A stretch of DNA of 64,000 bases from Pseudodesulfovibrio pelocollis (GCF_030282845.1 NZ_JASTWE010000014.1:1-64000), one strand, 5' to 3'; counted from the stretch's first letter, positions 37,905-64,000 are shown. Program-made: numbers and translations. The notes: generated from the sequence alone by a model not told the origin.

Positions 37905-37911
37905 GAAATGT
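37872..37911 (+). other. attTn7 target site at the 3' end of glmS
   Basis: The last codons of glmS, encoding KTVTVG, correspond to the region that Tn7 TnsD binds in enteric glmS. The transposon starts 25 bases past the position that aligns with the Escherichia coli glmS stop codon, the same distance as in Tn7. The five bases 37907-37911 (AATGT) should be the left copy of the target duplication; the other copy would lie at the far end outside the window. Confidence 0.75.
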
Positions 37912-37977
37912 TGTGGGAGAACAATAAAGTTGTTAACAAGACAATAAAGTTGTTAACGACACAATAAAGTTGTTAAC
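37912..37977. repeat. Tn7-type right end with three TnsB-site repeats
   Basis: Starts TGTGGGAGAACAATAAAGT, nearly the same as the Tn7 terminus (TGTGGGCGGACAATAAAGT). The 17-base unit ACAATAAAGTTGTTAAC then occurs three times without a mismatch, at 37921, 37941 and 37961, exactly 20 bases apart. Closely packed TnsB sites next to tnsA and to glmS identify this as the counterpart of the Tn7 right end. Confidence 0.92.
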
Positions 37978-38026
37978 AAAAGCCGCTCCGGCTGCTATGA
38001 AAATGGCAAATCAGGAGCGGCTTTTT
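37978..38026 (+). terminator. Hairpin between transposon end and tnsA (terminator / RBS mask)
   Basis: Arms AAAAGCCGCTCC (37978-37989) and GGAGCGGCTTTTT (38014-38026) form a strong stem with a U-tract on its 3' side. It can end transcripts entering from glmS. The right arm also contains the AGGAG ribosome binding site of tnsA, nine bases before its ATG, so the same stem would hide that site in read-through RNA. Confidence 0.7.
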
Positions 38027-42581: not shown

Positions 42582-42585
42582 GCCC

Positions 42586-44097
42586 ATGCTCAATTTCCCC
42601 GTGCCATACCCTGAAGAGCTCATATACAGCACTGTGGCGCGAGCCGGAGTCCACTTCGGCATAACCAGCCCCAAGCGACTGCTCGACGAGGCCTTCGGCA
42701 ATCGAATGATCGTCGCCACGGTCGACCTGCCGTCCCACCTCGAAACCTTGTCCAAGCATTACCCACAGTCTCTGGGGCTCACCCCTGAGCAATTGGCATA
42801 CAAGCATACGCTGCTTCCGCTCTATGCGCCATTCGTCCCGGAAGCCCGGAGACAGAAATGCCTTCAATGGATGGCCCGCGCCTCCAAGGGGGCAGCCCAC
42901 CTATCCTTGGGCATCACCACTTCCCGAGTTAAACCCAGAAGGCATTTCAGACTATGCCCCTCTTGCCTGAATGAGCAGCTTGCTCGGTACGGGGAATATT
43001 ACTGGGAACGCCTATGGCAAGTTGCCGGCTGTGATGCCTGCCTCAAGCATGCAACGTTGCTTAAGACGCAACACAGGCTCCGCAACTATCACCGGCATGA
43101 ATTCATTGCGCTCACCCCGGAAAAGGCCATCGATCCCCAGCACAGCCTTCCTCCTCCGGTCGATAAGCGCATCGAACTCCGGGTCTTTGAGCTTCTCAAC
43201 CTCCCCTCCTCGCCATCTCCCTCCCTTGAACAATGGGGCCTCTTCTACAAGCACTTCGCTCACGACACGGGTATCACACGCGGCGACAAGGTCATATACG
43301 ATCTCCTCAAGCAGAAAATTCTAACCTGCTGGCCGGAGCGCCTGCTGCAGCGGATCGGGATTCTGATCGACGACAGCCAATCCTCTTGGTTGCGCTTGAT
43401 AATGCGCAAGCCCCGGAAGGCGTTCAGCTACATGGAGCATATCATCGTTCTGGAGGCTCTGCTGGGCCCAGATTGGCATATCCTCGAAGTGATGAACCAA
43501 GTGCGAAAACAGAAGCAAAGAAAAGCTCCTGCGGCCTCCCTCCACACCCCAAGAGTATCATCCGCCAAGCTCACCAGAATGCGCGAAACATGGATGGTCA
43601 TCCTGAAAACACACGGAACGAGGCAGGGAAGATTACTCGGTGCCGACTCCATTTACACCTGGCTTTACAGGCATGATAAAAAGTGGTTACTGGAAATCAA
43701 TGCGCGATATCGCAAATCAACTCGATCAGATGGGAAAAGGATTGATTGGCAAGCGCGGGACCTGGAAATTCTGGAACGGCTGGAGCATGTGAAAAGATCA
43801 CATGGGGACAAGCACACCGATCCACGACGAAGCGCGAACTGGTACCTCGCGCAAGCTGCTTGCCGGCACCTGTCGCGAAAGATGGACAAACTGCCGCTTT
43901 CGGCTGCATTTTTGAAAAAATACAGCGAAGACGTGGCCAGTTATCAGATTAGGCGGATTAACCGCGTTCTTCAGGACAAGGAATCATCAGCTGGCTCACT
44001 CCTCTACTGGGAACTCATGCGACTGTCAGGCCTGAACGAGCAGAGAATGACCAAGCGAACCAGAGAGTTCTTGCGCCAATCAGGGTGGTCAGCATGA
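42586..44097 (+). CDS. tnsD: Tn7 target selector TnsD (TniQ family)
   Basis: A 503-residue DNA-binding protein (Tn7 TnsD has 508). The TniQ zinc site is intact at Cys124, Cys127, Cys152 and His155, the same positions as in Tn7. TnsD binds the end of glmS and directs insertion just downstream of the gene, which agrees with where this element sits. It starts four bases after tnsC and overlaps tnsE by ATGA. Confidence 0.95.
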   Translation: MLNFPVPYPEELIYSTVARAGVHFGITSPKRLLDEAFGNRMIVATVDLPSHLETLSKHYPQSLGLTPEQLAYKHTLLPLYAPFVPEARRQKCLQWMARASKGAAHLSLGITTSRVKPRRHFRLCPSCLNEQLARYGEYYWERLWQVAGCDACLKHATLLKTQHRLRNYHRHEFIALTPEKAIDPQHSLPPPVDKRIELRVFELLNLPSSPSPSLEQWGLFYKHFAHDTGITRGDKVIYDLLKQKILTCWPERLLQRIGILIDDSQSSWLRLIMRKPRKAFSYMEHIIVLEALLGPDWHILEVMNQVRKQKQRKAPAASLHTPRVSSAKLTRMRETWMVILKTHGTRQGRLLGADSIYTWLYRHDKKWLLEINARYRKSTRSDGKRIDWQARDLEILERLEHVKRSHGDKHTDPRRSANWYLAQAACRHLSRKMDKLPLSAAFLKKYSEDVASYQIRRINRVLQDKESSAGSLLYWELMRLSGLNEQRMTKRTREFLRQSGWSA

Positions 44098-45698
44098 CCA
44101 AATACTTTCTCGACGGCATTGATGACAACGTGACGGTGTGGGAGATTGGCTCGCTCTTCAGAAGCCTCACTGGAAGCAAGTGGAACATCAACGTTAGCTT
44201 CTCACCACCTCAGTCAAAAAAATATACAAGTATATCTAACGCCTCGCTCCTAGCCAGAAGGCGGCTGCTCAGGGCAACTCAAACGTTCAAAAAACCCGGC
44301 CACCCGCTGAACTTCACCCTTTCGGGTACAAGCCATTGGGAAGTCAAAACGATCGGCCAATGCCCCATCGGTGATGGGTACTCAAAAAAACAAGAGTTCG
44401 GCCAATTCTGCTTCGTCTTCACAACCCCGGACGGCATAACCGTCTATCTCCCCCAGTTTGAACTGGCACGGATACTTTTCTTCCATGGAGGCTATCTTTC
44501 CAGAACCGCAATCGAATCGGACTGCTTGGAGACGGACTTCGCTGTGGAAATTGATGATAAAGACAACGCTGTCATTCGTGTGATGCCTTGTACCAGTTAT
44601 TCGCTCTCGCACCTCAATGATCCAACATGCCGCAATTATTTATCCTGGATATTGTTGAATGCCGACGTCAAAGGTTCCTACCGAAGTATCACAAAGTATC
44701 AACGGCTTTATGGGTACGACACCTACAAATACAGAAAATGGAAATTCCAATTTGATCCTCCACAACTTGAACAAGTCGATCTTTATGCACGCGGGCATTA
44801 TGAAACAAATTCCAAGTTGTTTTTTCTGTACGAAATTGACCGGATAGAAAACATCCCGAACACCCCGTTTCGGAGTGTCTCGATGGAACACCCAGAGTTT
44901 GAGAATACGATACATGGAGAAGGACATGGCGCTCGTCCTGCCGGAGGGGGATCAGATACTCCCACAATTGTCCATGATGATATCGTCTCAAATGCTAATA
45001 TCCAACCGGCAACATTGGAAAACGAACGCGTCACTATAACATTCAAACATCCATTCTACGTGGCTAAGGTCACCACAAAAGAAAAAAAAAGAGCCACATC
45101 GCACTCTGATCACGAAAACTCCGACTCCCAACCGCCCATAAGCACGGAAGAGGGAGTAGCAGATCACGGGCTCCCCGGAGGGGATTGGGCTACGTTGAAT
45201 GACGAAACGAACTACGATGATATTTTTGAGAACAAATTCAAATGCTTTTTGGCCATGATCAACGTTCTGATTGAAGCCCATGGATGCGTTCCCGTTTCAG
45301 AAAAGGTCATGCCCCTTCCCAGCGAAGGAAGGTGTACGAAGCACCAACTTTCAACAACGGGGGAACCAAGGAGCATGGCGATAATTGGTTTGGGTGTTGA
45401 CCACAAGACAGTATATCTACTTGAGGTCGACACCTCTGATGCTGAAAAGGCCCTGTCCACACAGCTGCTTGTCGTCGAGAACCAAGAGGACTGGGCCAAA
45501 AACCTTGATCGCCTCCAGCGGGAGATGCTTCGGGCATCCCTCAGATGGCCGAGAAAGCTGCTTGAAGAGCTTTGCGGGAAGGACCACCACATTGGGGTCA
45601 ATCACCCACAAACACCTTCTGACAACAAGGGCATTCTCCCTCCCGATTCAATTACTGGCTGGGCAGGACGGGTTTATGGGTGGATGCAGAATCTGTAG
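44094..45698 (+). CDS. tnsE: Tn7 target selector TnsE
   Basis: A 534-residue protein (Tn7 TnsE has 538) recognised from shared segments: QFELARILF, FQFDPPQ, NYDDIFENKF, VYLLEVDTSDAEKALST and GVNHP near the C-terminus. In Tn7, TnsE steers insertion to lagging-strand DNA during replication, especially on conjugating plasmids, by contacting the sliding clamp. The ATG overlaps the tnsD stop. It is richer in AT than the chromosome. A TAGGCCC/GGGCCTA palindrome overlaps its stop codon. Confidence 0.93.
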   Translation: MTKYFLDGIDDNVTVWEIGSLFRSLTGSKWNINVSFSPPQSKKYTSISNASLLARRRLLRATQTFKKPGHPLNFTLSGTSHWEVKTIGQCPIGDGYSKKQEFGQFCFVFTTPDGITVYLPQFELARILFFHGGYLSRTAIESDCLETDFAVEIDDKDNAVIRVMPCTSYSLSHLNDPTCRNYLSWILLNADVKGSYRSITKYQRLYGYDTYKYRKWKFQFDPPQLEQVDLYARGHYETNSKLFFLYEIDRIENIPNTPFRSVSMEHPEFENTIHGEGHGARPAGGGSDTPTIVHDDIVSNANIQPATLENERVTITFKHPFYVAKVTTKEKKRATSHSDHENSDSQPPISTEEGVADHGLPGGDWATLNDETNYDDIFENKFKCFLAMINVLIEAHGCVPVSEKVMPLPSEGRCTKHQLSTTGEPRSMAIIGLGVDHKTVYLLEVDTSDAEKALSTQLLVVENQEDWAKNLDRLQREMLRASLRWPRKLLEELCGKDHHIGVNHPQTPSDNKGILPPDSITGWAGRVYGWMQNL

Positions 45699-46633: not shown

Positions 46634-47131
46634 ATGGCCGAGCCGATTCACGACAAGATAAAACGATCCCTACAGGCAGCCGAAGGCTTGTATCACCGCC
46701 TGGTGCTGCTGGTGGGTGAGACCGGTTCCGGCAAGACCAGCGTTCTTCGGGCTATTGCCGAGGAATTCGGCTCGTCCGTCGTCAACGTCAATCTGGCGCT
46801 CTCGGGCGAACTGCTGGAACTGACAGCCAAGCAGAGGTCGCTTCGACTACCGGGCATTCTCGACCAGATCGCGGACCAGGCTCAGTCACCCGTGGTGCTG
46901 GATAATCTCGAGATCCTTTTCGACAAGGATCTCCAGCAGGACCCCTTGCGCCTGCTGCAGGGCATTTCAAGAAACCGGGCCGTGGTGGCTTCGTGGAACG
47001 GAACCATGAATTCCAGGAGGCTTTTGTACGCCGAAACCGGCCATCCCGAGTACCGCAGCTATGACTCGGTTGATGCCATGATTGTGGGCATGGATGGCAC
47101 GGCCACGGTCGATTCGGCAAAAAAACAATAG
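46634..47131 (+). CDS. brxF: BREX-3 P-loop protein BrxF
   Basis: A 165-residue ATP-binding protein with Walker A GETGSGKT at 28-35 and the Walker B-like VVLDNLEILF. Length, motif context and position just before brxC match BrxF, the marker of type 3 BREX systems. AAGGAG precedes the ATG. Its biochemical role is unknown beyond being a small ATPase-like component of the system. Confidence 0.88.
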   Translation: MAEPIHDKIKRSLQAAEGLYHRLVLLVGETGSGKTSVLRAIAEEFGSSVVNVNLALSGELLELTAKQRSLRLPGILDQIADQAQSPVVLDNLEILFDKDLQQDPLRLLQGISRNRAVVASWNGTMNSRRLLYAETGHPEYRSYDSVDAMIVGMDGTATVDSAKKQ

Positions 47132-50878
<3,747 letters not shown>

Positions 50879-50963: not shown

Positions 50964-53774
50964 ATGAAGATGAAAGAAACCAGTTTGTTCGACTCGCTGC
51001 TTGAAGAGACGCAGAAGCCCTCCGGCCCGGTGACTTGCCTCGGCATGACCTTCGAGAACGATGAGGCCCGCCGCGCCCACTTTACCGAGGAGCTGCGCAA
51101 GAAGCTGCGGGACCCGGAGTTCCGCAAGATCGAAGGCTTTCCCATCGGCAGCGACGAAGACATCCTGAACCTGAGCGATCCGCCGTACTACACCGCCTGC
51201 CCGAACCCATGGATTGCCGATTTCATAGCTGAATGGGAGGCGCAGAAGCCAGAGCAGCCTGAAGGCTATCACTATCACCGTGAGCCTTTTGCGGCCGACG
51301 TGAGCGAGGGGAAAAATGACCCCATTTACAACGCGCACTCCTACCACACCAAGGTGCCGCACAAGGCCATCATGCGTTACATCCTCCACTACACACAGCC
51401 GGGGGACATCGTGTTCGACGGATTCTGCGGGACCGGCATGACGGGCGTGGCTGCGCAGATGTGTGGCGATCGTGAAGTGGTAATGTCTCTCGGCTATCAG
51501 GTGAAGCCGGACGGGACCATTTTGCAGGAAGAGGTGGATGAAGGTGGCAAAAAGGTTTGGAAGCCTTTTTCAAAGCTTGGTGTCCGCAAAGCTGTACTAA
51601 ACGACCTTTCACCGGCGGCGACGTTCCTCGCGCATAACTACAACCTTTATGTTGATACGGCATCATTTGAAAATGAAGTTAAGAAATTCATCAAAATAAT
51701 CGAGCGAGAATGTGGATGGATGTATGAAACAACTCATACAGACGGGGTGACCAAGGCGAAAGTGAACTACACAATCTGGTCAGATGTATTTGTCTGTCCT
51801 GATTGCACTAATGAGATTGTATTCTGGAATGTTGCAGTCGACAAAGAATCTGAGACAGTAAACGATGAGTTTCAATGTCCTAATTGCCAGGCCAGCTTAA
51901 CAAAGCGCAATATGGACCGTGCTTGGGTTACCACTTATGACCGATTCTTGGGAGAGACGATTCGGCAGGCCAAGCAGATACCTGCTTTGATCAATTATAG
52001 CGTTGGTGGAAAACGATATGAGAAGAAACCTGACGAGGGTGACTTCGAAATTTTGGAGAAGATAGAAAACGAGGGATTAGACGGATGGTTTCCTATCAAT
52101 CGCATGATTGAGGGGCATGAGTCTAGGAGAAATGATCCGGTTGGTATCACGCACACTCATCACTTTTATTCACCTCGAAATCTATCAGTGATGTCGAAGA
52201 TTTTGTATTTGGCTGACAAATCTGAACTTACTCCCTTCAAGTTCGGTTTTCTGAATACCTCTTGGCACGCCACGCAGATGAGGCAATACAACCCAGGTGG
52301 CGGGCACAGACCTAGAACGGGTACTTTGTATATGCCTTCCATCCATAGTGAAGGTAACATGATTCCCGTTTACAAGAAAAAGCTGAACCAGCTTGTTCAG
52401 TTTTATAAAGTCAAGTCTCATCGAGATCGGGTTGCCATTATTCAGACCATGTCGTCTACGGTGGACTCATCTATCGAAGCGGGTTTGGACTATGTATTCA
52501 TTGATCCGCCTTTCGGCGCAAATCTGAACTACTCAGAACTAAATTCAATATGGGAGGCATGGCTTAAAGTAGGTACGAATAATGCCGAGGAGGCAATTGA
52601 AAATAGGTCACAGAACAAGGGGATTGATGAATACCGATCTCTTATGACTCAGTGCTTTCGACAGGCATACAACCAATTGAAACCTGGGCGCTGGATGACT
52701 GTAGAGTTTTCTAATACAAGCGCTGGTATTTGGAACAATATTCAGACGGCAATATCAGACGCTGGATTTATTGTCGCGAATGTCTCTGTTCTAAATAAAA
52801 AGCAGGGGTCGATAATGGCTTACACTACCCCAACTGCGGTCAAACAAGACCTCGTCATCTCGGCCTACAAACCTAATGGTGGGTTTGAAGACCGTTTCCA
52901 GAAGGAGGCGCAGACTGAAGAAGGCGTGTGGGATTTTGTCCGCACGCACTTGAAGTATCTGCCGGTAACCAAGCTCCAAGGCGTTTTGTTGCTAATGGTG
53001 CCCGAGCGCGATCCGCGCATCCTATTCGACCAGATGATCGCATTCTATGTCCGCAAGGGTTACCCGGTGCCGATCTCAAGCCAGGAATTTCAGATCGGGC
53101 TGGCACAACGCTTCATCGAGCGTGACGGCATGTATTTCCTGCCGGATCAGGTGGCCGAATACGACCGCAAGAAGATGACTTCCGGTGCCCCACAGCAGCT
53201 TTCGATGTTTGTCTCCGACGAGGCCTCGTCGATCCAATGGCTCCGTCAGCTCATCAAGGAAAAGCCGCAGACCTTCTCCGACATCACCCCGCAGTTCATG
53301 CAGCAACTCGGCGGCTGGAGCAAGAACGAGGCCCAGCTCGATCTGCGCGAACTCCTGAACCAGAACTTCCTCTGCTACGACGGCAAAGGCCCGGTGCCCG
53401 AGCAAATCCACGCCTACCTTTCCACCAATTGGAAGGAACTGCGCAACCTGCCCAAGGATGACCCGGCGCTGGTGACCAAAGCCCGTGACCGGTGGTATGT
53501 GCCCGATCCCAAAAAGCAGGGGGACCTCGACAAACTGAGGGAGCGAGCCCTTCTTAAGGAATTTGAGGAGTACAAGCAGCGAGCCAAGAAGTTTACCACC
53601 CGAGAGAAATTCCGTTTGGAAGCTGTCCGCGCCGGATTCAAGAAAGCCTGGCAGGAACGCGACTACGCCGTCATCGCCGCCGTGGCCGACAAGATCCCCA
53701 ACAACGTCCTTGAAGAAGATCCCAAACTGCTCATGTGGTACGACCAGGCGGTAACACGGATGGGAGGGGAATAA
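50964..53774 (+). CDS. pglX: BREX-type adenine-specific DNA methyltransferase PglX
   Basis: A 936-residue methyltransferase. The SAM-binding motif FDGFCGTGMTG has Asp152 as its first acidic residue; the catalytic DPPF motif is at 514-517. Two CxxC pairs (CPDC, CPNC; about 275-310) suggest a zinc site in between. In BREX systems PglX methylates adenine in one strand of a short asymmetric site to mark self DNA. GC content changes inside the gene: the first ~500 and last ~850 bases are GC-rich while about 51600-52910 is AT-rich, which suggests exchange of the central part. The stop overlaps the nuclease gene start as TAATG. Confidence 0.88.
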   Translation: MKMKETSLFDSLLEETQKPSGPVTCLGMTFENDEARRAHFTEELRKKLRDPEFRKIEGFPIGSDEDILNLSDPPYYTACPNPWIADFIAEWEAQKPEQPEGYHYHREPFAADVSEGKNDPIYNAHSYHTKVPHKAIMRYILHYTQPGDIVFDGFCGTGMTGVAAQMCGDREVVMSLGYQVKPDGTILQEEVDEGGKKVWKPFSKLGVRKAVLNDLSPAATFLAHNYNLYVDTASFENEVKKFIKIIERECGWMYETTHTDGVTKAKVNYTIWSDVFVCPDCTNEIVFWNVAVDKESETVNDEFQCPNCQASLTKRNMDRAWVTTYDRFLGETIRQAKQIPALINYSVGGKRYEKKPDEGDFEILEKIENEGLDGWFPINRMIEGHESRRNDPVGITHTHHFYSPRNLSVMSKILYLADKSELTPFKFGFLNTSWHATQMRQYNPGGGHRPRTGTLYMPSIHSEGNMIPVYKKKLNQLVQFYKVKSHRDRVAIIQTMSSTVDSSIEAGLDYVFIDPPFGANLNYSELNSIWEAWLKVGTNNAEEAIENRSQNKGIDEYRSLMTQCFRQAYNQLKPGRWMTVEFSNTSAGIWNNIQTAISDAGFIVANVSVLNKKQGSIMAYTTPTAVKQDLVISAYKPNGGFEDRFQKEAQTEEGVWDFVRTHLKYLPVTKLQGVLLLMVPERDPRILFDQMIAFYVRKGYPVPISSQEFQIGLAQRFIERDGMYFLPDQVAEYDRKKMTSGAPQQLSMFVSDEASSIQWLRQLIKEKPQTFSDITPQFMQQLGGWSKNEAQLDLRELLNQNFLCYDGKGPVPEQIHAYLSTNWKELRNLPKDDPALVTKARDRWYVPDPKKQGDLDKLRERALLKEFEEYKQRAKKFTTREKFRLEAVRAGFKKAWQERDYAVIAAVADKIPNNVLEEDPKLLMWYDQAVTRMGGE

Positions 53775-55609
53775 TGTTTCTCAGAGAAGTCGTTCTTCAA
53801 AATTTCCGTGGCTACAAGAATCAGCATCGAATTCAGATAGACCAGCTCACGGCGTTTATCGGAAAAAATGATGCGGGAAAGTCCTCCATATTTGATGCCT
53901 TGGCCGTTTTTTTTGACCACCCATTGGGCAAAATTGACGCTTCAGATATTTGTGTTCATGCCGGGGGCAGCGGCGAATTAAGAATCGGCTGCGTTTTTTC
54001 GGATTTTCCTGATTCGATCACCATTGACGCGTCTTCTGTCACAACGCTTGCAGACGAGCATCTACTGAATGTCGATGGCTTACTTGAAATCCATAAGGTC
54101 TACGAGTTTTCCGACGGAGCGCTAAAGAAGCCAAAGGTGTTTGCGATTGCCAACCATCCAACGGCCAACGGCTTCGATGGTCTGTTATCAAAAAAGAACG
54201 CTGAATTGAAAAAAGCTGGTGAGGCTGCGAATATCGATGCCGGAGTAGATAAACGATCTAATGCAGCCCTTAGAAAGGCCATTTGGGGGAGCGCAGCCGA
54301 TCTGGAATTTGGGCCTTCCGAAATCCAACTAGACAAGGAAGATGCCAAAGCCATCTGGGAACAGCTCTCCAAATACCTACCCGAATACGCCCTTTTCCGA
54401 GCAGACCGCCCGTCAACAGACGAAGACTCAGAAGTCCAGGACCCTCTCAAGGTCGCCATAAAACAGGCAATCGAAGAAGTGCAAGCTGAACTGGACGCAG
54501 TGAAGGAAAAGGTCAAAGCACGCACGCTTGATGTAGCCAATCGTACCATTACGAAGCTTGCTGATTTCGATAGTGCGCTTTCATCGCAACTCAACCCGAA
54601 TTTCAAATCAGACCCAAAATGGGACGGACTTTTCAAACTCTCTCTAACAGGAGACGATGAAATACCAATCAACAAGAGGGGCAGCGGTGTCCGGAGATTG
54701 GTTCTGTTCAGCTTCTTCCGTGCTGAAGCGGAACGGCTTCGAGAAGAGCATAAGAAAGGGAATATTATTTACGCAGTGGAAGAGCCGGAGACTGCACAGC
54801 ATCCAGACAACCAGCGAAAGGTCATTGAAGCATTGCAGGCTATCGCCGAAGCCGATGGTTGCCAAGTTATGCTTACCACACACGTCCCTGCTTTGGCGTC
54901 ACTATTACCAATCACTTCCATTCGATATGTCTGTTCTCACGACCTAAATGGCAGAGATGTCTGTATTGCAGATGATGATGTAATCAAGACGGTTGTCGCT
55001 GATCTGGGAATCATCCCTGACAAACGGGCAAAAGTTTTGGTGTGTGTAGAAGGTCCGCATGACCTGCAATTTTTGAAGCGTATTAGTGGCCATCTCCGAG
55101 CGGAGGACGCATCCGTCATTGATATGTTTGCAGATCCAAGAGTTGCGTTGGTCGTCTTGGGTGGAAGCACCTTGAAGGAATGGGTAAATCAGCATTACCT
55201 AAAAAATGTGGGGCTTCCAGAAGTCCATATTTACGACCGTGACGAACTGAAGAACGGAAAATACAAATACCAGGACGATAGAGATGCTGTAAATGCAAGA
55301 GGAGACGGGTCCATTGGATTTTTGACTTCAAAGCGGGAAATGGAGAATTACCTACACATTGATGCAATAAGTGAAGCATTGCAGCCTGTCGTTGGCTTTA
55401 ACTTCACGTTTGGGCTTTCAGACGACTGTGATGTTGAAACCGAAATAAAAACACTGTTGAACGGGCAAGGAAAAATCCAGAGGCGTTCGATTAAACATTG
55501 GCTTAACGAAGACGCGGCAAGTCGTATGACCATAGATCGCTTGAAAGAGCGAAACGGCTATGAAGAGATCAAAGGCTGGTTCACTGAGATCGCAAATAGG
55601 GTCGTTTGA
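53774..55609 (+). CDS. OLD-family ATP-dependent nuclease (ATPase plus TOPRIM)
   Basis: A 611-residue protein. The N-terminal ABC-type ATPase has Walker A GKNDAGKS (30-37) and Walker B YAVEEPETAQHP. The C-terminal TOPRIM nuclease domain has Glu426 in VCVEGPHD and the acidic pair Asp488/Asp490 in YDRDE. OLD nucleases (relatives include GajA of Gabija) cut DNA and serve in phage defence. It lies between pglX and the helicase, a position outside the standard BREX-3 gene list, with one-base overlaps on both sides. It is notably AT-rich compared with brxC and the helicase. I start at 53774 rather than the upstream GTG at 53735, because of the TAATG coupling. Confidence 0.9.
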   Translation: MFLREVVLQNFRGYKNQHRIQIDQLTAFIGKNDAGKSSIFDALAVFFDHPLGKIDASDICVHAGGSGELRIGCVFSDFPDSITIDASSVTTLADEHLLNVDGLLEIHKVYEFSDGALKKPKVFAIANHPTANGFDGLLSKKNAELKKAGEAANIDAGVDKRSNAALRKAIWGSAADLEFGPSEIQLDKEDAKAIWEQLSKYLPEYALFRADRPSTDEDSEVQDPLKVAIKQAIEEVQAELDAVKEKVKARTLDVANRTITKLADFDSALSSQLNPNFKSDPKWDGLFKLSLTGDDEIPINKRGSGVRRLVLFSFFRAEAERLREEHKKGNIIYAVEEPETAQHPDNQRKVIEALQAIAEADGCQVMLTTHVPALASLLPITSIRYVCSHDLNGRDVCIADDDVIKTVVADLGIIPDKRAKVLVCVEGPHDLQFLKRISGHLRAEDASVIDMFADPRVALVVLGGSTLKEWVNQHYLKNVGLPEVHIYDRDELKNGKYKYQDDRDAVNARGDGSIGFLTSKREMENYLHIDAISEALQPVVGFNFTFGLSDDCDVETEIKTLLNGQGKIQRRSIKHWLNEDAASRMTIDRLKERNGYEEIKGWFTEIANRVV

Positions 55610-58503
55610 TGAATCAACCGCTTTGGCAATACAGCACCGTTCATAACGGCGCCTGCAAGGTCATCGAAGAACAGACCTTGTGGGGGCAGACGGTGTGCCG
55701 AGTCTGGTTGCCGAACCAGGACGCGGTGGTGCGCGTGCCCCGCTCCGCTTTGCGGCCGTTGAGTGCCGACCTGCGGCCAGAGATCGAGGCCGGACGCATT
55801 GCCTATGTGGCCGCCGCAGCAAAGGTAGCCGAGGTGCTTGAAGGCTCCACCAGCGCCACCGACGGTCATGTGCTGCTGGCTCCCATGGAGTCCAACGTCA
55901 TTCCGCTACCGCACCAGATCCACGCCTTGTCCCGGGCCATCTCCGGCGACCGCGTGCGCTACCTGCTGGCCGACGAGGTGGGTCTCGGTAAGACCATCGA
56001 GGCCGGTCTGGTCATGCGCGAGCTCAAGCTGCGCGGGCTGGTTCGACGAATTTTGGTCGTCTCTCCCAAAGGCATCGCTACCCAGTGGGTGGCGGAAATG
56101 CAGACCCATTTCAACGAACAGTTCCAGCTCGTGCTGGGCGACGACATCGGCACATTGCAACGCCTGGCTCCAGGGGCGGATCACCGGAGCTCAGCCTGGT
56201 CGATGTTCGATCAGGTCATCGTTTCCCTGGATTCGGTCAAGCCCATGGACAAGCGGCGCGGCTGGACCGCCGAGCGCGTTGCCGAATACAACCGCAGCCG
56301 ATTCGAGGATCTGATTACCGCCGGTTGGGACCTGGTAGTGGTGGACGAAGCGCACCGCCTGGGTGGAAGCACCGATCAGGTCGCCCGCTACAAACTCGGC
56401 AAGGGCCTGGCGGAGGCCGCGCCCTATGTACTGCTCCTTTCGGCTACACCCCACCAGGGGAAGACCGATGCCTTCCATCGGCTGATGAACCTGCTGGATG
56501 ACGATGCCTTTCCGGATATGGACAGCGTCTCCCGCGACCGGGTGGCTCCGTATGTCATCCGTACCGAGAAGCGCAAGGCCATCGATGCCGACGGCAAGCC
56601 GCTCTTCAAACCCCGGCGGACGCAGATGGCCCCGGTGGCCTGGGAGAGCCGTCACCAACTGCAGCAGCTTCTCTACGAGGCGGTGACCGACTATGTGCGC
56701 GAGGGCTACAACCAGGCCCTGCGCGAGAAGAAGCGCCACATCGGCTTTCTGATGATCCTGATGCAGCGCCTGGTGGTCTCCAGCACCCGGGCGATCCGCA
56801 CCACTCTGGAGCGTCGGCTTGCGGCACTCAAGGATGGTGAGCAACAAGCCAGCCTGCGCCTGGCGGAACTCGAAAATAGCGCGGAGGGATCGGAAAGCCC
56901 AGACGATGAAATAGCCGAGCTGTACGACATGGACGGCCAGGAATTGCTCGATGAGCTGCTGAAATGCCATGTGTCGGCTCTGCAGAGCGAAGGCAGCCAT
57001 GTTGAGACCCTGCTCGACGCGGCGGTCCGTTGTGAACAGGCTGGCCCCGACGCCAAGGCCGAGGCGCTGATCGAGTGGATCTACAAGCTACAAGCCGAGG
57101 AAAACGAACCGGATCTGAAGGTGCTGATCTTCACGGAGTTCGTTCCCACCCAGCAGATGTTGAAGGAGTTTCTGGAAGCCCGGGGAATCTCTGTGGTCAC
57201 CTTGAACGGCTCCATGGACATGGGGGAACGTGGGGCAGCCCAGGATGCCTTCCGTAAATCGCATCGCGTATTGGTCTCCACCGATGCGGGCGGTGAGGGC
57301 CTGAACCTGCAGTTCGCCCACGTCATCATCAACTACGACATCCCCTGGAACCCCATGCGGCTGGAGCAACGTATCGGTCGTGTGGACCGTATTGGTCAGT
57401 CAAAAACCGTACAGGCGATCAATTTCGTTTTTGAAGATTCGGTCGAGTTCCGCGTGCGCGAGGTGCTGGAGCAGAAACTCTCGGTGATCTTCGAAGAGTT
57501 CGGCATCGACAAGACCGGTGACGTGCTCGACTCGGCCCAGGCCGGTGAGTTGTTCGAGGATGTGTTCGCCTCGGCCATCCTTAATCCTGACGGTATCGAG
57601 ACCTCCGTCGAGAACACGGTGGCCAAGATTCGTGATGAGATTCAGCAGGTGCGCGAGTCCTCCGCCATCTATGGCATCTCCGAAGAGCCGGATGTTCAAA
57701 CCGCTGAACGTCTGCGCTCCCATCCGCTACCCCATTGGGTGGAACGGATGACGGTCGGTTACCTCAACTCCCATGGCGGTGTGGCCAGTCGCAAGCGCTC
57801 CTGGTGGGACCTGAATTGGCCGGACGGTCAGGAACACCGCAAAGCCGTATTCAGCGCCCGAGAAGCGAATCGCTTGACCGATGCAACCCTGCTCAACCTT
57901 GAAAACAGCCGTGTCCGTGGTCTTGCCCTGAACCTGCCCCAGGTCGCGGCAGGTCAGCCATTGCCTTGCGTAACCGTGAGCGGACTACCGGCCAGCATTA
58001 CGGGTTTCTGGGGGCTGTTTGAGATTCGTCTTCAGGCCGGAATGCACCAGAAGACACAACTCCTGCGCATCCCCATGGTGCGGCGTGGCTATGTCAGCGT
58101 GTTCTTGAGCGAGGAAGGCAAACTGTTTCTGCCCACGGCTCGACATATCTGGGATGCGCTGCAGACTGCGGAAGCCCAGGTGCAGGCATCCCTCGGCCAG
58201 GATGAATCCATCACCGCCCATGAGCGGTTGCAAGAAGCGGCCGAACAGGCCGGACAGGAGCTGTTCGACGCATTAAAGCAGGCACATCTCTACTCTGTGG
58301 TTCGCGAAGAGAAACGTGGCGTCGTATCCTTTGCCTCGCGCCGCAAGGCCATAGAACGGGTTGGACTGCCGGAGGTGCGGCAGTTCAGACTGTCCCGTTG
58401 CGATGCGGACGAATCCGAGTGGCGGCATGAACTACAATCAGCACGGCAGGTCGTGCCGGAGATTCGGCCGCTGTTGGCGTTACGAATAAACAACCACATG
58501 TAA
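55609..58503 (+). CDS. brxHII: SNF2-type helicase, BrxHII-like
   Basis: A 964-residue DEAD/DEAH superfamily 2 helicase of the SNF2/RapA kind. Motif I is DEVGLGKT (ending at Thr129), motif II is DEAH (246-249), motif III is SATPHQGKT, and motif VI is QRIGRVDRIGQ. Length and neighbours fit BrxHII of type 3 BREX, which would remodel or translocate on DNA for the system. An alternative is DrmD of DISARM, but brxF and brxC speak for BREX. The gene after it is not pglZ, as would be usual, but a sugar epimerase that begins in the TAATG overlap. Confidence 0.88.
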   Translation: MNQPLWQYSTVHNGACKVIEEQTLWGQTVCRVWLPNQDAVVRVPRSALRPLSADLRPEIEAGRIAYVAAAAKVAEVLEGSTSATDGHVLLAPMESNVIPLPHQIHALSRAISGDRVRYLLADEVGLGKTIEAGLVMRELKLRGLVRRILVVSPKGIATQWVAEMQTHFNEQFQLVLGDDIGTLQRLAPGADHRSSAWSMFDQVIVSLDSVKPMDKRRGWTAERVAEYNRSRFEDLITAGWDLVVVDEAHRLGGSTDQVARYKLGKGLAEAAPYVLLLSATPHQGKTDAFHRLMNLLDDDAFPDMDSVSRDRVAPYVIRTEKRKAIDADGKPLFKPRRTQMAPVAWESRHQLQQLLYEAVTDYVREGYNQALREKKRHIGFLMILMQRLVVSSTRAIRTTLERRLAALKDGEQQASLRLAELENSAEGSESPDDEIAELYDMDGQELLDELLKCHVSALQSEGSHVETLLDAAVRCEQAGPDAKAEALIEWIYKLQAEENEPDLKVLIFTEFVPTQQMLKEFLEARGISVVTLNGSMDMGERGAAQDAFRKSHRVLVSTDAGGEGLNLQFAHVIINYDIPWNPMRLEQRIGRVDRIGQSKTVQAINFVFEDSVEFRVREVLEQKLSVIFEEFGIDKTGDVLDSAQAGELFEDVFASAILNPDGIETSVENTVAKIRDEIQQVRESSAIYGISEEPDVQTAERLRSHPLPHWVERMTVGYLNSHGGVASRKRSWWDLNWPDGQEHRKAVFSAREANRLTDATLLNLENSRVRGLALNLPQVAAGQPLPCVTVSGLPASITGFWGLFEIRLQAGMHQKTQLLRIPMVRRGYVSVFLSEEGKLFLPTARHIWDALQTAEAQVQASLGQDESITAHERLQEAAEQAGQELFDALKQAHLYSVVREEKRGVVSFASRRKAIERVGLPEVRQFRLSRCDADESEWRHELQSARQVVPEIRPLLALRINNHM

Positions 58504-59432
58504 TGAAAAAAAATAGAATCCTGATCATCGGCTCATCTGGTCTTGTCGGCACTGCTCTCACTTCAGCTCTTCTTTCCAAGGGAAACGATGTCGTTTGCTT
58601 TGATCTGCGGGCACAAGGAGAAGAACAAGGTGATATTTGTGACCGAGACCGAGTGCGAGATGCTGTATCGGGTGTCGACGGCATAGTCCATTTGGCCGCC
58701 GTCTCGCGTGTTCTCTGGGGGGAACGCGACCCCGATCTCTGTTGGGCGACCAACGTTGGCGGACTGAGTAACGTGCTCTATGCCGCAGCGCAATCAGTAC
58801 GTAAGCCTTGGCTAATTTTCACCAGCAGCCGCGAAGTATACGGGCAACCCGAATCGCTACCGGTTACTGAAGAAGCTCCGCTACGCCCGGTGAACGTATA
58901 TGGGCGCGCCAAGGTGGAAGGCGAACGGCTCGTCGCGGAGGCACAACGCGCTGGCATCAGAGCCTGCACCATTCGGCTGTCGAACGTATTCGGCTCGACC
59001 TGCGACCACGCCGACCGGGTAGTCCCTGCATTCACCCGTGCCGCTGCTCTCGGAACGGAGTTGCGAGTTGACGGGCGCGATCACACTTTCGACTTCACGC
59101 ACATCGATGACGTCACCCGCGGCATAGTCGCTCTAATCGAACTGCTGGGCATGGGAGACTCGCCGCCCCCTCCGATCCACTTTGTCAGTGGACAGCCAAC
59201 GACGCTATGGGAGCTCGCTAACTTGGCCGCTCAACTCGGTCAGCAGGACTCCCCAATCCGACTTGCGGCTCCTCGCAACTTCGACGTTGAGAGCTTCGTC
59301 GGAGACTCCTCGCGAGCAAAGGCACTGCTCGGGTGGCATCCGTTGGTTTCTTTAGAGGAAGGCATCTCCCGGCTCATTCAGGGGTTTCGTGACGTTCGCC
59401 CGACCGTCAAGGTGCGGGAGGTCGCGCGATGA
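58503..59432 (+). CDS. NAD-dependent nucleotide-sugar epimerase/dehydratase
   Basis: A 309-residue extended short-chain dehydrogenase. The NAD-binding motif GSSGLVG is at 10-16; the catalytic pair is Tyr133 and Lys137 (YGRAK) with the Ser/Thr at FTSSREVYG. Such enzymes change nucleotide-activated sugars, by 4-epimerisation or dehydration. The ATG shares a base with the helicase stop, and the 3' end overlaps the next gene by ATGA. Codon choice differs from both the chromosome and the BREX genes. As the first of four overlapping genes it would supply a sugar donor to the glycosyltransferase. Confidence 0.9.
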   Translation: MKKNRILIIGSSGLVGTALTSALLSKGNDVVCFDLRAQGEEQGDICDRDRVRDAVSGVDGIVHLAAVSRVLWGERDPDLCWATNVGGLSNVLYAAAQSVRKPWLIFTSSREVYGQPESLPVTEEAPLRPVNVYGRAKVEGERLVAEAQRAGIRACTIRLSNVFGSTCDHADRVVPAFTRAAALGTELRVDGRDHTFDFTHIDDVTRGIVALIELLGMGDSPPPPIHFVSGQPTTLWELANLAAQLGQQDSPIRLAAPRNFDVESFVGDSSRAKALLGWHPLVSLEEGISRLIQGFRDVRPTVKVREVAR

Positions 59433-61780
59433 AGATATTAAAGGTCATCCACGGCTACCCAATGCGCTACAACGCCGGGTCCGAGGTGTACAGTCAGACA
59501 CTATGCCACGCACTCGCTGATCGCCACGAGATTCATGTGTTCACCCGGGAAGAAGACGCCTTTGCGCCTGACTTCCAACGTCGTGTGGAGCAGGACGCCG
59601 ATGACCCTCGCGTCACCGTGCACGTGGTCAACAACCCCCGCTTCAAGGATCGCTACCGCGCAGCGGGGATCGATCATCGCTTCGCTGAGGTTCTCGAACT
59701 TGTGTGTCCTGACATCGTTCATGTCGGTCACCTGAACCACCTCTCCACCTCACTCGTGCGAGAAGCCGAGCTTCGCGAAATCCCGATCGTCTTCACGCTC
59801 CACGACTACTGGCTGATGTGCCCCCGTGGTCAGTTCATGCAAATGTTCCCCGAGGATTCTAACAACCTCTGGGCTGCGTGCGATGGACAGGAGGACCGCA
59901 AGTGCGCCGAACGCTGCTACGCCCGCTACTTCAGCGGAGCGCCTAATGAGTTAGACACGGATGTCGCCTATTGGACAGACTGGGTCGCGCGCAGGATGCG
60001 GCATGTCCGAGAGATGGCCGAGCTCGTCGACCTCTTCATCGCGCCCGCGCGATACCTTCTTGACCGATACCGCGACGATTTCGGACTGCCTGAGCGCAAA
60101 CTTGTCTACCTCGACTACGGATTCGCGCGAGAGAGAATGGCCGGGCGTTGTCGGGTCGACGCCGAACCTTTTACGTTCGGATACATCGGTACACACATCC
60201 CCGCGAAGGGGATTCACCATCTCATCCGAGCCTTCGGCTCGCTTCGGGGGGAGGTGCGGCTTCGCATATGGGGTCGGCCCCGCGGACAGGACACCGACGC
60301 ACTCCAACGGATCGCAGGGGCACTTCCAAGAGACACAGCGGGCCGAGTCGAGTGGCTCCCAGAATACAAGAACCATGAGATCGTCCGCGACGTGTTCGAC
60401 CGATGCGACGCGATCATCGTACCCTCGGTGTGGGTAGAAAACTCCCCACTCGTCATCCACGAGGCACAACAGGCTCGCGTCCCTGTCGTCACCGCCAACG
60501 TTGGTGGGATGGCGGAGTATGTCCACCACGAGGTCAACGGGCTGCTCTTCGAGCACAGGTCAGTGGCGTCACTTGCCGAGCAGATGCAGCGCCTCGTCGA
60601 CGACCCGAGGCTCGCCGCACAACTCGGTGACCGAGGATACCTGTTCAGCGACTCAGGAGACATCCCGGCGGCCGAGGAACACGCTCGCAACGTCGAAGCT
60701 GTATACAAGCGCATCATCAAACGGCGTGCCTCGGCGCAAGTGCTTCGTCAGGCTGGCCCCTGGCGTGTCACGTTCGACACGAATCCGGACACCTGCAACC
60801 TACGGTGCTTGATGTGCGAAGAGCACTCACCACACAGTTCGCTTCAGATACAACGAAAAGAAGGTGGGAAGCCACAACGCCTCATGCCTTTTGAAATGAT
60901 CGAGCGCGTGATCGCGGAGACGGCACATCACGGTCTCCGCGAGGTTATCCCTTCTACGATGGGAGAACCTCTGCTGTACGAGCACTTCGAGGGCATCATC
61001 GATCTTTGCCACCGCTACGCCGTCAAGCTGAACCTGACTACGAACGGAACCTTCCCTCGACTCGGTGCCTCGGCATGGGCAGAGCGGATCGTCCCGGTCA
61101 CTTCGGACGTGAAGATTTCCTGGAACGGTGCTACTAGGGCTACCCATGAGGCCATCATGCTCGGGAGCCGCTGGGAGAAGGCGATCGAGAACGTTCGCGA
61201 CTTCATCATGGTGCGCGACGCCCACTCCGAGGCCGGAGGGAATCGCTGCCGAATCACCTTCCAGCTCACCTTCCTCGAGGCAAACGTGGCTGAGCTAGCC
61301 GACATGGTGCGTTTAGCCATCGGCCTCGGTGTCGACCGCGTGAAAGGGCACCACCTCTGGACGCACTTTGACGAAATTCATGAACAGTCGATGAGGCGTA
61401 ATTCCGACGCAATTGAACGCTGGAACCAAGCTGTACTAGCGGCGCGAGATGCTGCTGCCGAGCGGACTCTACCGAACGGGAGGCACGTGCTCCTCGAAAA
61501 CATATTCTTGCTGGACCCCTCGGCGACGGATAATCTGGCACCCGGCGGACCTTGCCCCTTCCTGGGGCAGGAGGCTTGGGTTAGCGCTGTCGGACGCTTC
61601 AACCCCTGCTGTGCCCCCGATGCGCAGCGGCGGACGCTCGGAGAGTTCGGCAACCTTACCGACCAGAACTTCATGAAAATTTGGAACGGGGAAGCTTACC
61701 GCGAGCTCATGGCCACATACCATAACCACTCACTCTGCCTCAGTTGCAACATGCGCAAGCTGGCTGGAGGTAAAGAATGA
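59429..61780 (+). CDS. GT4 glycosyltransferase fused to a SPASM-type radical SAM enzyme
   Basis: A 783-residue fusion. Residues 1 to about 430 are a GT-B fold glycosyltransferase of family 4, with FGYIGTHIPAKGIHHL and the acidic site ENSPLVIHEAQ. Residues about 440-783 are a radical SAM domain with CNLRCLMC (Cys456, Cys460, Cys463) and the TMGEP glycine-rich strand, ending in a SPASM-like region (GRFNPCCAP, then CLSCNMRK with Cys770 and Cys773) for extra Fe-S clusters. One chain could thus add a sugar and then change it by radical chemistry, or act on the same acceptor twice. I know of no characterised protein with this exact pairing. Confidence 0.88.
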   Translation: MKILKVIHGYPMRYNAGSEVYSQTLCHALADRHEIHVFTREEDAFAPDFQRRVEQDADDPRVTVHVVNNPRFKDRYRAAGIDHRFAEVLELVCPDIVHVGHLNHLSTSLVREAELREIPIVFTLHDYWLMCPRGQFMQMFPEDSNNLWAACDGQEDRKCAERCYARYFSGAPNELDTDVAYWTDWVARRMRHVREMAELVDLFIAPARYLLDRYRDDFGLPERKLVYLDYGFARERMAGRCRVDAEPFTFGYIGTHIPAKGIHHLIRAFGSLRGEVRLRIWGRPRGQDTDALQRIAGALPRDTAGRVEWLPEYKNHEIVRDVFDRCDAIIVPSVWVENSPLVIHEAQQARVPVVTANVGGMAEYVHHEVNGLLFEHRSVASLAEQMQRLVDDPRLAAQLGDRGYLFSDSGDIPAAEEHARNVEAVYKRIIKRRASAQVLRQAGPWRVTFDTNPDTCNLRCLMCEEHSPHSSLQIQRKEGGKPQRLMPFEMIERVIAETAHHGLREVIPSTMGEPLLYEHFEGIIDLCHRYAVKLNLTTNGTFPRLGASAWAERIVPVTSDVKISWNGATRATHEAIMLGSRWEKAIENVRDFIMVRDAHSEAGGNRCRITFQLTFLEANVAELADMVRLAIGLGVDRVKGHHLWTHFDEIHEQSMRRNSDAIERWNQAVLAARDAAAERTLPNGRHVLLENIFLLDPSATDNLAPGGPCPFLGQEAWVSAVGRFNPCCAPDAQRRTLGEFGNLTDQNFMKIWNGEAYRELMATYHNHSLCLSCNMRKLAGGKE

Positions 61781-63438
61781 GCTGGCGATCTTTCCAGGTC
61801 TCATCCTGCGGCACGCATCACCTCGATGAAGGCGGGCAGCCCGTGTACAGCGAACGCTTCGATGAGGTCCTGAAGTTCCACGCGCCCGGGTTGGCTCCCG
61901 TCCTCCGCTGTGGTTTGGCGTGGCACGTGCTGAGCGATGGTACAGCCGCATACGACCGGCGCTTCATCCGAACCTTCGGTTTCTACGAAGAACTGGCCGC
62001 CGTTGTGGCCCCAGATGGTTGGCATCACATCTTTGCCGACGGGAACAACGCCTATACGCGCCGCCACGCCTGGTGCGGCAACTTTCAGCAGGGGCGCTGC
62101 GCCGTTCGTGACCACGACGGTAACTACTTTCACATCACGCCATGTGGTAAGGATGCCTACCCGACCCGATGGCGCTATGCAGGCGACTATCGCGACGGAA
62201 TCGCAGCCATACAGACAGCCGATGGGTACTCCACCCACATCGAACTCGAAGGTTCGCTTCTCCACGGGGAGTGGTTCGTCGACCTCGACGTATTCCACAA
62301 GGGCTTCGCGCGCGCCCGTGACGAAGACGGTTGGATGCATGTCGACTTCCAGGGTCGACCGGTCTACGCACGACGCTTTCAAACCGTCGAACCATTCTAC
62401 AATGGCCAAGCACGTGTAGAGCGTTTCGATGGAACACTTGAAATCATCGACGAGACCGGGGCGAGCTTAGTCGAGCTACGACCAGCGCGGTGCTCGGAAT
62501 TTGCAAGCCTCTCCGGAGACATGGTGGGGTTTTGGCGAACCCAGACCATCGGCACCGCCGTCGAACTCGGCGTCTTCGATGTGCTGCCAGCGGCCGAACG
62601 CGAGGTCGCTGATCAGTGTGGACTCCACACCGACGGAGCTCGGCGACTTCTCCGAGCACTTGGTGAGCTGGACCTTGCCACGCGGCAGGAAAATCAGTGG
62701 ACGCTCACGGCGCGTGGGGAGCTGCTCCAGGCCGACCATCCCCTCACGCTTGCCGACGCCGCGGTCGAGTACGCAGGGCCGTTCACTGTGATGTGGGGAC
62801 GCCTGCCCGATGCGCTCCGAAAGAGCACTTGTTGGACCGCACCAGACGTGTTCGGTGAGGTCGCACGCGACGACTCACGTCGTCTCGGCCACCACCGCAT
62901 GCTGCGAAGTTATGCGCGGCACGACTACGCTGAGGTCTGCCGCGCCCTTGATCTCTGCGGCGACGAGCGCCTGATCGATGCAGGAGGCGGGCTAGGTGTA
63001 CTCGCGCAACTGATCCTGGACGCGCACCCGTCCGTCTATATTACCGTCCTCGAGCGACCGGAGGTGGTGGCGATGGCGCCATCTGCTTCCAGGGTGTGCT
63101 GGAGGAGCGGGAACCTGTTCGAACCTTGGGAGATAGAAGCGGATGCCGTGGTCTTGTCGCGCGTACTCCACGACTGGAACGACACAGAGGCGATGCAAAT
63201 CCTCAGGCATGCACGGGCCGCGCTCCCCCGCCACGGGCGGCTCTTCATCGTGGAGATGTTGCTCCTAGACCAAAGCGTGTCCGGTGCGCTATGCGATCTA
63301 CACTTGCTTATGGCTACCGGCGGGCGCGAACGTTCGGCGGAACATTTTGGGCGACTTCTCGCTGCCACCGGCTTCGAGTTCGCCGCAGTTCGAAGACTAA
63401 CGGCCCTTCCGTCGGTCATCGTGGGGGTGGCGTCATGA
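61777..63438 (+). CDS. WG-repeat domain fused to a SAM-dependent methyltransferase
   Basis: A 553-residue fusion. Residues 1 to about 235 contain roughly eight degenerate WG-type repeats (for example DGWHHIFADGNNAYTRR and DGWMHVDFQGRPVYARR), probably a beta-structured binding domain. Residues about 245-553 are an O-methyltransferase of the plant/antibiotic type: an N-terminal helical dimerisation part (GTAVELGVFDVLP) and the SAM motif DAGGGLG starting at Asp401, later LSRVLHDWND. The methyl acceptor is unknown. It overlaps both neighbours by ATGA. Confidence 0.88.
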   Translation: MSWRSFQVSSCGTHHLDEGGQPVYSERFDEVLKFHAPGLAPVLRCGLAWHVLSDGTAAYDRRFIRTFGFYEELAAVVAPDGWHHIFADGNNAYTRRHAWCGNFQQGRCAVRDHDGNYFHITPCGKDAYPTRWRYAGDYRDGIAAIQTADGYSTHIELEGSLLHGEWFVDLDVFHKGFARARDEDGWMHVDFQGRPVYARRFQTVEPFYNGQARVERFDGTLEIIDETGASLVELRPARCSEFASLSGDMVGFWRTQTIGTAVELGVFDVLPAAEREVADQCGLHTDGARRLLRALGELDLATRQENQWTLTARGELLQADHPLTLADAAVEYAGPFTVMWGRLPDALRKSTCWTAPDVFGEVARDDSRRLGHHRMLRSYARHDYAEVCRALDLCGDERLIDAGGGLGVLAQLILDAHPSVYITVLERPEVVAMAPSASRVCWRSGNLFEPWEIEADAVVLSRVLHDWNDTEAMQILRHARAALPRHGRLFIVEMLLLDQSVSGALCDLHLLMATGGRERSAEHFGRLLAATGFEFAAVRRLTALPSVIVGVAS

Positions 63439-64000
63439 CCGGGGTACAGTGGCAGATCCCACCATCGATGCTGCACCTCCTTGAACAAGCGCCAACTGAC
63501 CGCGCCGTCGTCGTTCTCCTCAGGCACTCAGTCCGTAATCACCTGCCGCCGGATGACGTAGGCTACGCTCTCCCAATCACCGATGTTGGGCAAAGACTCG
63601 CGCTCAAGCTGGGAGGCCTACTCCGCGGTCGGCTGTGCACGCTCCAATCGAGCCCTCTTTTGCGTTGCGTCCAAACAGCTCAGGCAGTCGCGGAAGGAGC
63701 TGGCACGGACATCACCGCTGTCCCAAATCGACTCCTTGGCGATCCGGGCGTGTTTGTCCTCGACGGGCGGCGCGCCTGGGCGAACTGGGAGCAGCTCGGC
63801 CACAAGGGCGTGATACGTCACCTCATCAACGAAACTGGGGCGCTGCCAGGTATGGCGCGCCCCGACGAGGCCGCGCGCTTCCTTGTTCAGTCGATGCTTG
63901 CCGAAGCCGCGAGCCGCCCCGGCATACATGTCTTTGTGACACACGACTCGCTCGTGATAGCAACGGCCGCACGCCTGCTCGGCAAGCAGTTCGGTCTCGA
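63435..64000 (+). CDS. Histidine phosphatase superfamily protein (cut by window end)
   Basis: The first 188 residues of a phosphoglycerate-mutase-like phosphatase. The catalytic LRHSVRNH motif gives His31 and Arg34; a second active-site histidine is in FVTHDSL. Members remove phosphate from sugars, small molecules or proteins. The start overlaps the methyltransferase stop by ATGA. The 3' end lies outside the window, so the full length is unknown. In this operon it could dephosphorylate a sugar or a pathway intermediate. Confidence 0.85.
   Translation, partial: MTGVQWQIPPSMLHLLEQAPTDRAVVVLLRHSVRNHLPPDDVGYALPITDVGQRLALKLGGLLRGRLCTLQSSPLLRCVQTAQAVAEGAGTDITAVPNRLLGDPGVFVLDGRRAWANWEQLGHKGVIRHLINETGALPGMARPDEAARFLVQSMLAEAASRPGIHVFVTHDSLVIATAARLLGKQFGL

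What the first reader, a model, noticed from the sequence alone, without database searches (positions are those of the whole stretch)
58503..64000. Unrecognised four-gene operon: epimerase, glycosyltransferase/radical SAM fusion, WG/methyltransferase fusion, histidine phosphatase
Four genes are locked together by four-base ATGA overlaps. Together they could make, transfer, radically modify, methylate and dephosphorylate a sugar. Two of the four are domain fusions I do not recognise from any characterised pathway. They ride on a Tn7 element directly behind a phage-defence operon. This could be a small-molecule or glycoconjugate defence or signalling system, or a secondary-metabolite cluster. 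That the steps act on one product is inference.
Basis: partly seen in the sequence, partly recalled or inferred. Interest (0 to 1): 0.88.

Follow-up and report, generated by a model that had tools for sequence, protein, structure and literature searches.

The report
Mobile sugar-modifying cassette inside BREX operon
Four overlapping genes that look like a small-molecule (modified sugar) production line sit inside an anti-phage BREX operon on a Tn7 jumping element, and the same core enzymes recur across many phyla, including in the unexplained "Undecim Cluster" of Wolbachia phage WO.

Summary
The four genes are real and form one operon, but not simply "behind" a defence operon. They are inserted between brxHII and pglZ of an otherwise complete BREX type 3 operon, as cargo of a TnsABCDE Tn7 transposon with both ends and a 5-bp target duplication. 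Three junctions are ATGA overlaps; the brxHII junction is TAATG. The fourth gene runs past the window and is a histidine phosphatase fused to a CCA-adding-type nucleotidyltransferase. The core (GT4 + twitch radical SAM + WG-repeat protein) is kept together in 84 of 86 related loci, by record titles spanning about a dozen bacterial and archaeal phyla. Variable partners are O-methyltransferase, phosphatase, nucleotidyltransferase, carbamoyltransferase, PhyH oxygenase, aldolases and an exporter. It travels on Tn7-like elements, prophages and plasmids. The endosymbiont form is the Undecim Cluster of Wolbachia phage WO, whose function is unknown and which already contains this GT/radical SAM fusion. 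Best reading: a mobile biosynthetic cassette for a radical-oxidised, O-methylated glycoside, here co-expressed with BREX. The enzymatic class is well supported; the product and an anti-phage role are inference. An O-antigen or capsule locus, and a classical RiPP with its own precursor gene, are disfavoured.

The parts
58503..59432 (+). NAD-dependent epimerase/dehydratase (SDR), first gene of the cassette; starts in the brxHII stop codon (TAATG)
59429..61780 (+). GT4 glycosyltransferase fused to a radical SAM/twitch enzyme; ATGA overlap with the epimerase. CxxxCxxC at residues 456-463; auxiliary-cluster cysteines C709, C727, C770, C773
61777..63438 (+). WG-repeat domain (about residues 1-240) fused to an antibiotic-type O-methyltransferase (about 241-553); ATGA overlap
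63435..64000 (+). Histidine phosphatase fused to a CCA-adding/poly(A)-polymerase-head nucleotidyltransferase; continues to contig position 64748, then overlaps pglZ by 13 nt; ATGA overlap with the methyltransferase gene
46634..47131 (+). brxF (BREX type 3)
47147..50878 (+). brxC (DUF6079, BREX type 3)
50964..53774 (+). pglXI / BrxXI DNA methyltransferase
53774..55609 (+). OLD-family/AriA-like ABC ATPase embedded in the BREX operon
55606..58503 (+). brxHII helicase; in reference operons followed directly by pglZ, here by the cassette
37912..37979 (+). Tn7 right end with three 20-bp TnsB-site-like repeats; 5-bp target duplication AATGT at 37907-37911
37997..45698 (+). tnsA, tnsB, tnsC, tnsD, tnsE (start of tnsA not refined)

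Best explanation
The four genes are a mobile small-molecule biosynthesis cassette inserted at the brxHII/pglZ junction of a BREX type 3 operon carried by a Tn7 transposon. Most likely route: the SDR prepares a nucleotide sugar; GT4 joins the sugar to a small, probably phosphorylated acceptor; the fused twitch radical SAM oxidises a C-H/alcohol carbon of the sugar or cyclitol (BtrN-like two-electron chemistry); the O-methyltransferase caps a hydroxyl while the WG-repeat domain holds the intermediate; the histidine phosphatase removes a phosphate and the nucleotidyltransferase adds a nucleotide to it or protects it. Having no exporter of its own and being co-translated with BREX, the product probably acts inside the cell as a chemical layer next to BREX. 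Shown: genes, domains, conserved linkage, insertion site, mobility. Inferred: order of steps, substrate, product, anti-phage purpose.
For: GT4 and WG flank the radical SAM in 84 of 86 loci, with repeated 4-nt overlaps. The tailoring set varies as in natural-product clusters: O-MT, PhyH, Thr aldolase/beta-eliminating lyases, carbamoyltransferase, ABC exporter. The phosphatase + nucleotidyltransferase function is kept although the protein changes: HisPh-NTase here, NTase + Tyr-phosphatase in Bacteroidota, archaea and one planctomycete, kinase + phosphatase in L014. The MT resembles DtpM, CalO1, MmcR and DnrK. The radical SAM profile hits BtrN with all four auxiliary-cluster cysteines aligned, and Cys spacing is identical in the 56 proteins where it could be read. 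Co-transcription with BREX is implied by the overlaps at both ends and by no promoter-like site in 57000-64000. Mobility/defence context: window Tn7 + BREX; Azospira TnsABC + TniQ directly upstream; prophage or phage contigs L090 and L089; recombinase element L095; Mza, type IIG, GajB-like or BrxF/BrxC neighbours; phage WO.
Against: No product or substrate is known. Of the loci examined only one other (L032) has BREX type 3 nearby, and there it is not nested, so the BREX link may be opportunistic. Defence-gene neighbours were not compared with a background rate. The BtrN match is weak (E about 1e-4). Most members lie in metagenome bins whose taxonomy can be wrong. No self-resistance gene or exporter was found in the window cassette.
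Confidence: 0.62

Rival explanations
1. The cassette makes a bioactive glycoside unrelated to phage defence (antibacterial or signalling, or a host-interaction metabolite as suggested for the Undecim Cluster), and sits in BREX only because Tn7 cargo hotspots collect genes.
For: Most of the 86 loci are not next to BREX. Endosymbiont versions are in plasmids or phage WO with an ABC exporter and no BREX genes among the annotated neighbours. The Undecim literature proposes LPS/antibiotic/host-interaction roles (PMC9203015).
Against: Insertion at one precise intra-operonic junction with overlapping reading frames, keeping downstream pglZ and brxA translated; repeated association with defence genes, Tn7 and prophages.
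Confidence: 0.4
2. The enzymes modify a macromolecule that BREX uses or protects (DNA, RNA, or a BREX protein) instead of making a free metabolite.
For: Nested among DNA-methylating BREX genes; one nucleotidyltransferase has a tRNA CCA-adding-like head.
Against: The MT is of the small-molecule O-MT family; the BREX methyltransferase PglXI is already present; the same core occurs without BREX in 84 of 86 loci; the nucleotidyltransferase matches only the head region of CCA enzymes.
Confidence: 0.12
3. RiPP or protein-maturation system: the radical SAM/SPASM enzyme modifies a peptide, possibly the WG-repeat protein itself.
For: SPASM/twitch enzymes often mature peptides; the radical SAM profile also matches the anaerobic sulfatase-maturating enzyme and YydG; the WG domain is highly conserved, with His/Gly/Tyr in register.
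Against: No precursor gene fits in the window cassette (all junctions overlap). WG is a folded domain (pLDDT about 97) fused to a methyltransferase. A GT4 + SDR + phosphatase + nucleotidyltransferase set points to sugars.
Confidence: 0.08
4. Part of an ordinary O-antigen or capsule locus.
For: Epimerase and GT4 are common there; two GTs lie near the G172 copy.
Against: No flippase, polymerase or further GTs in the window; flanked on both sides by BREX genes.
Confidence: 0.02

Closest known systems
Undecim Cluster of Wolbachia phage WO (WD0611-WD0621; PMC9203015), also on Rickettsia plasmid pREIS2
   Same: Epimerase, GT4/radical SAM fusion and WG-repeat/methyltransferase in the same order (38%, 49/53% and 48/22% identity); mobile-element borne; uncharacterised
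   Different: Undecim type adds PhyH oxygenase, two Thr aldolases and an ABC exporter, lacks HisPh-NTase, and its methyltransferase has lost motif I; the window type keeps an intact MT and adds HisPh-NTase, and is nested in BREX
Butirosin-type aminoglycoside enzymes (BtrN twitch radical SAM dehydrogenase with a GT4 step)
   Same: GT4 plus twitch radical SAM with four aligned auxiliary-cluster cysteines; chemistry on sugars/cyclitols (PMC9012708)
   Different: Weak similarity only; no 2-deoxystreptamine synthase or aminotransferases; adds SDR, O-MT and WG domain. The GT4 step in butirosin is recalled, not tested
BREX type 3
   Same: Complete core brxF-brxC-pglXI-brxHII-pglZ-brxA
   Different: 5.2-kb enzyme cassette inserted between brxHII and pglZ; a recent BREX survey (PMC12839542) lists only nuclease/ATPase auxiliaries, and a text search found no glycosyltransferase, radical SAM or epimerase
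Chemical anti-phage defence (aminoglycosides PMC9239200; anthracyclines PMC13250531)
   Same: Possible functional analogue: secondary metabolites that block phage
   Different: Those are classical antibiotic pathways; no link to BREX operons was seen

Membership tests
BREX type 3 | brxF, brxC, pglXI, brxHII, pglZ, brxA in one operon | tested here: met
   PADLOC near-full-length matches for all six; order as in L093 and L094
BREX type 3 | brxHII directly followed by pglZ | tested here: not met
   Four-gene cassette between them
Tn7 transposon | TnsABCDE, terminal TnsB repeats, TSD, insertion next to glmS | tested here: met
   Pfam TnsA, TnsC, TnsD, TnsE, with TnsB supported by a weak Mu-transposase C-terminal match; three repeats at right end; left end on contig C53 and TSD AATGT; glmS-like gene 35079-37904
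Undecim Cluster | Epimerase, GT/radical SAM fusion, WG/methyltransferase core | tested here: met
   BLAST against phage WO L102
Undecim Cluster | PhyH, ABC exporter, two Thr aldolases, eleven genes | tested here: not met
   Absent from window and contig
Known anti-phage systems (PADLOC 2.0) | Cassette proteins match a defence model | tested here: not met
   Only a weak generic radical SAM match to pVip (E 4.6e-6); other three none
O-antigen/capsule locus | Flippase, polymerase, several glycosyltransferases | tested here: not met
   None among neighbours 46634-71744
RiPP cluster | Precursor peptide gene | tested here: not met
   All cassette junctions overlap; no free ORF between genes
BtrN-like radical SAM dehydrogenases | Twitch domain with four-Cys auxiliary cluster | tested here: met
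   Profile alignment, invariant spacing 18/43
BtrN-like radical SAM dehydrogenases | Two-electron oxidation of a cyclitol/sugar alcohol | not testable with these tools
   Needs enzymology

The most novel reading that the evidence does not exclude
BREX type 3 here has recruited a complete natural-product pathway as a chemical anti-phage arm: a radical-SAM-made glycoside produced on the same transcript as BREX. The same pathway core, spread by phages, plasmids and Tn7 across bacteria and archaea, is what the Wolbachia phage WO Undecim Cluster derives from.
Probability: 0.27. Interest if true: 0.92.

Novelty: new variant of a known kind. Interest (0 to 1): 0.74.

Why it matters
It ties an unexplained, highly expressed gene island of insect endosymbiont phages to a widespread biosynthetic core, and gives free-living carriers, at least one a deposited strain (Azospira oryzae DSM 21223), where its product can be sought. 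If the product is anti-phage, it would be a case of a metabolite pathway built into a restriction-like defence operon; the recent BREX survey read here mentions none.

Tried and rejected
O-antigen/capsule locus: rejected, BREX genes on both sides and no flippase or polymerase. RiPP with a separate precursor: no room between overlapping genes. Known PADLOC system: no model beyond a weak generic radical SAM match. A strict BREX-linked system: only L032 has BREX type 3 genes nearby among 86 loci (L044 shows only a helicase match), so BREX linkage is not the rule. Literature for "WG repeat" with "radical SAM": none found in the held library. WG fold comparison: the PDB fold search listed only methyltransferases in its top rows and the WG profile hit no solved structure, so the WG ligand is unknown. 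Identifying the host organism through its glmS-like gene: uninformative.

Full report
Observation. The window is positions 1-64000 of a 71,744-base contig; the fourth gene ends at contig position 64748. Pfam confirms an SDR epimerase/dehydratase, a GT4 fused to a radical SAM/SPASM domain, and an O-methyltransferase with dimerisation domain. The N-terminal domain of the third protein belongs to the WG-repeat family: 25 of 25 stand-alone homologues match PF14903. AlphaFold2 gives pLDDT 93, Foldseek matches RosC/GpgP-type phosphatases and tRNA CCA-adding enzymes, and a profile of the C-terminal domain alone hits CCA-adding enzymes at E 8e-4. Junctions are ATGA at three places, TAATG between brxHII and the epimerase, and a 13-nt overlap with an AGGAGG before the GTG of pglZ.

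Where it sits. PADLOC identifies brxF, brxC, pglXI, an AriA/OLD-like ATPase and brxHII upstream, and pglZ, brxA and ZacABC downstream. In two reference BREX-3 operons on plasmids of Roseicitreum and Roseomonas, brxHII and pglZ overlap directly. The cassette therefore lies at that junction, inside the operon. The whole region is Tn7 cargo: TnsABCDE follow a glmS-like gene; the right end starts at 37912 with three 20-bp repeats; the left end is on contig C53 at position 142, with the matching 5-bp duplication AATGT. The stretch of cargo between the two contigs is unsequenced.

Relatives. A radical SAM alignment scan of GTDB genomes returned 80 stored loci of 444 confirmed relatives. In 84 of 86 loci examined the GT and WG genes flank the radical SAM; one exception (L077) is cut by its contig end and another (L014) has WG about 4.6 kb away. 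GT and radical SAM are fused or split; WG is fused to the methyltransferase or free. By record titles the loci span Pseudomonadota, Myxococcota, Planctomycetota, Chloroflexota, Cyanobacteriota, Nitrospinota, Gemmatimonadota, Verrucomicrobiota, Chlamydiota, Bacteroidota and several archaeal lineages; many are metagenome bins and some labels are doubtful. The cassette is sporadic: the window genome plus one other of 199 family members, and the window genome plus one other of 395 genomes of the phylum. The tree puts the window with Acidocella and the same-family genome G172 elsewhere, consistent with transfer (the G172 branch is long).

Modules. The phosphatase/nucleotidyltransferase step is kept while the protein changes: HisPh-NTase here; NTase fused to a tyrosine phosphatase in Bacteroidota, archaea and one planctomycete; P-loop kinase fused to phosphatase in L014. 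Carbamoyltransferases, PhyH oxygenases, Thr aldolase/beta-eliminating lyases and an ABC exporter are optional. This pattern, a fixed core with exchangeable tailoring, is that of a natural-product pathway.

Radical SAM. Auxiliary-cluster cysteines have invariant spacing in all 56 proteins where the pattern could be read. The profile aligns all four with BtrN, a twitch enzyme that oxidises 2-deoxy-scyllo-inosamine in butirosin biosynthesis (PMC9012708). Similarity is weak, so this supports "works like", not membership. The methyltransferase fold is closest to LaPhzM, DtpM, CalO1, MmcR and DnrK.

Known counterpart. The phage collection gave Wolbachia phage WO. Its region is the Undecim Cluster, WD0611-WD0621, described as an eleven-gene island of unknown function, highly expressed and transferred among endosymbionts; its UC3 is described as a GT/radical SAM fusion (PMC9203015; PMC12801941). 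Epimerase, GT/radical SAM and WG-MT are homologous in order. Two flavours emerge: a free-living type with intact methyltransferase motif I (30 proteins, the window included), and a group of 15 lacking it, mostly the Undecim type with PhyH and aldolases plus the two Chlamydiota and L048.

Context and function. Besides BREX/Tn7 here, the module is directly downstream of TnsABC and TniQ genes in Azospira oryzae. It lies between an endolysin-like gene and an integrase on a Bacteroidota prophage contig, and among phage replication genes on another; beside a serine recombinase, ImmA-like and HTH genes in G402 (from sequence); and near MzaABC, type IIG, GajB-like, NERD-helicase or BrxF/BrxC genes in several close relatives. 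No background rate was computed. A 2026 BREX survey lists nuclease and ATPase auxiliaries only, and the text search found no GT, radical SAM or epimerase. That antibiotics can block phages is published (PMC9239200, PMC13250531). I therefore commit to a mobile pathway for a modified glycoside at 0.62, with an anti-phage chemical role as the most novel reading at 0.27.

Noticed in passing
L002:5498-9744 (contig 67498-71744): A ZacABC-type candidate defence system follows brxA directly; zacC runs off the contig end.
   Followed up: partly
window 53774-55609: OLD/AriA-like ABC ATPase inside the BREX operon, where two reference operons carry a different (RNA-binding-domain annotated) gene between brxC and the methyltransferase; no separate AriB nuclease gene was noticed.
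   Followed up: no
window 35079-37904: Unusually long (941 aa) GlmS-like protein with SIS and glutamine amidotransferase domains, weakly similar to normal GlmS, next to the Tn7 right end.
   Followed up: partly
L101 (C53:1-147): Left end of the Tn7 element with TnsB-like inverted repeats and TSD AATGT on a separate contig, so part of the cargo is unsequenced.
   Followed up: yes
L005, L006: Reduced plasmids of Arsenophonus from louse flies carry an Undecim-like cassette plus SHMT-like and Thr aldolase genes beside the pantothenate genes; the text search of the plasmid paper found no mention of it.
   Followed up: partly
L057, L058, L062, L065, L068-L071, L073, L005, L006, L102: Undecim-type WG-methyltransferases have lost SAM motif I, so the methyltransferase half may be a scaffold there.
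   Followed up: partly
L032:3520-4035: A Myxococcales bin has brxF/brxC on the opposite strand a few kb from a cassette copy.
   Followed up: partly
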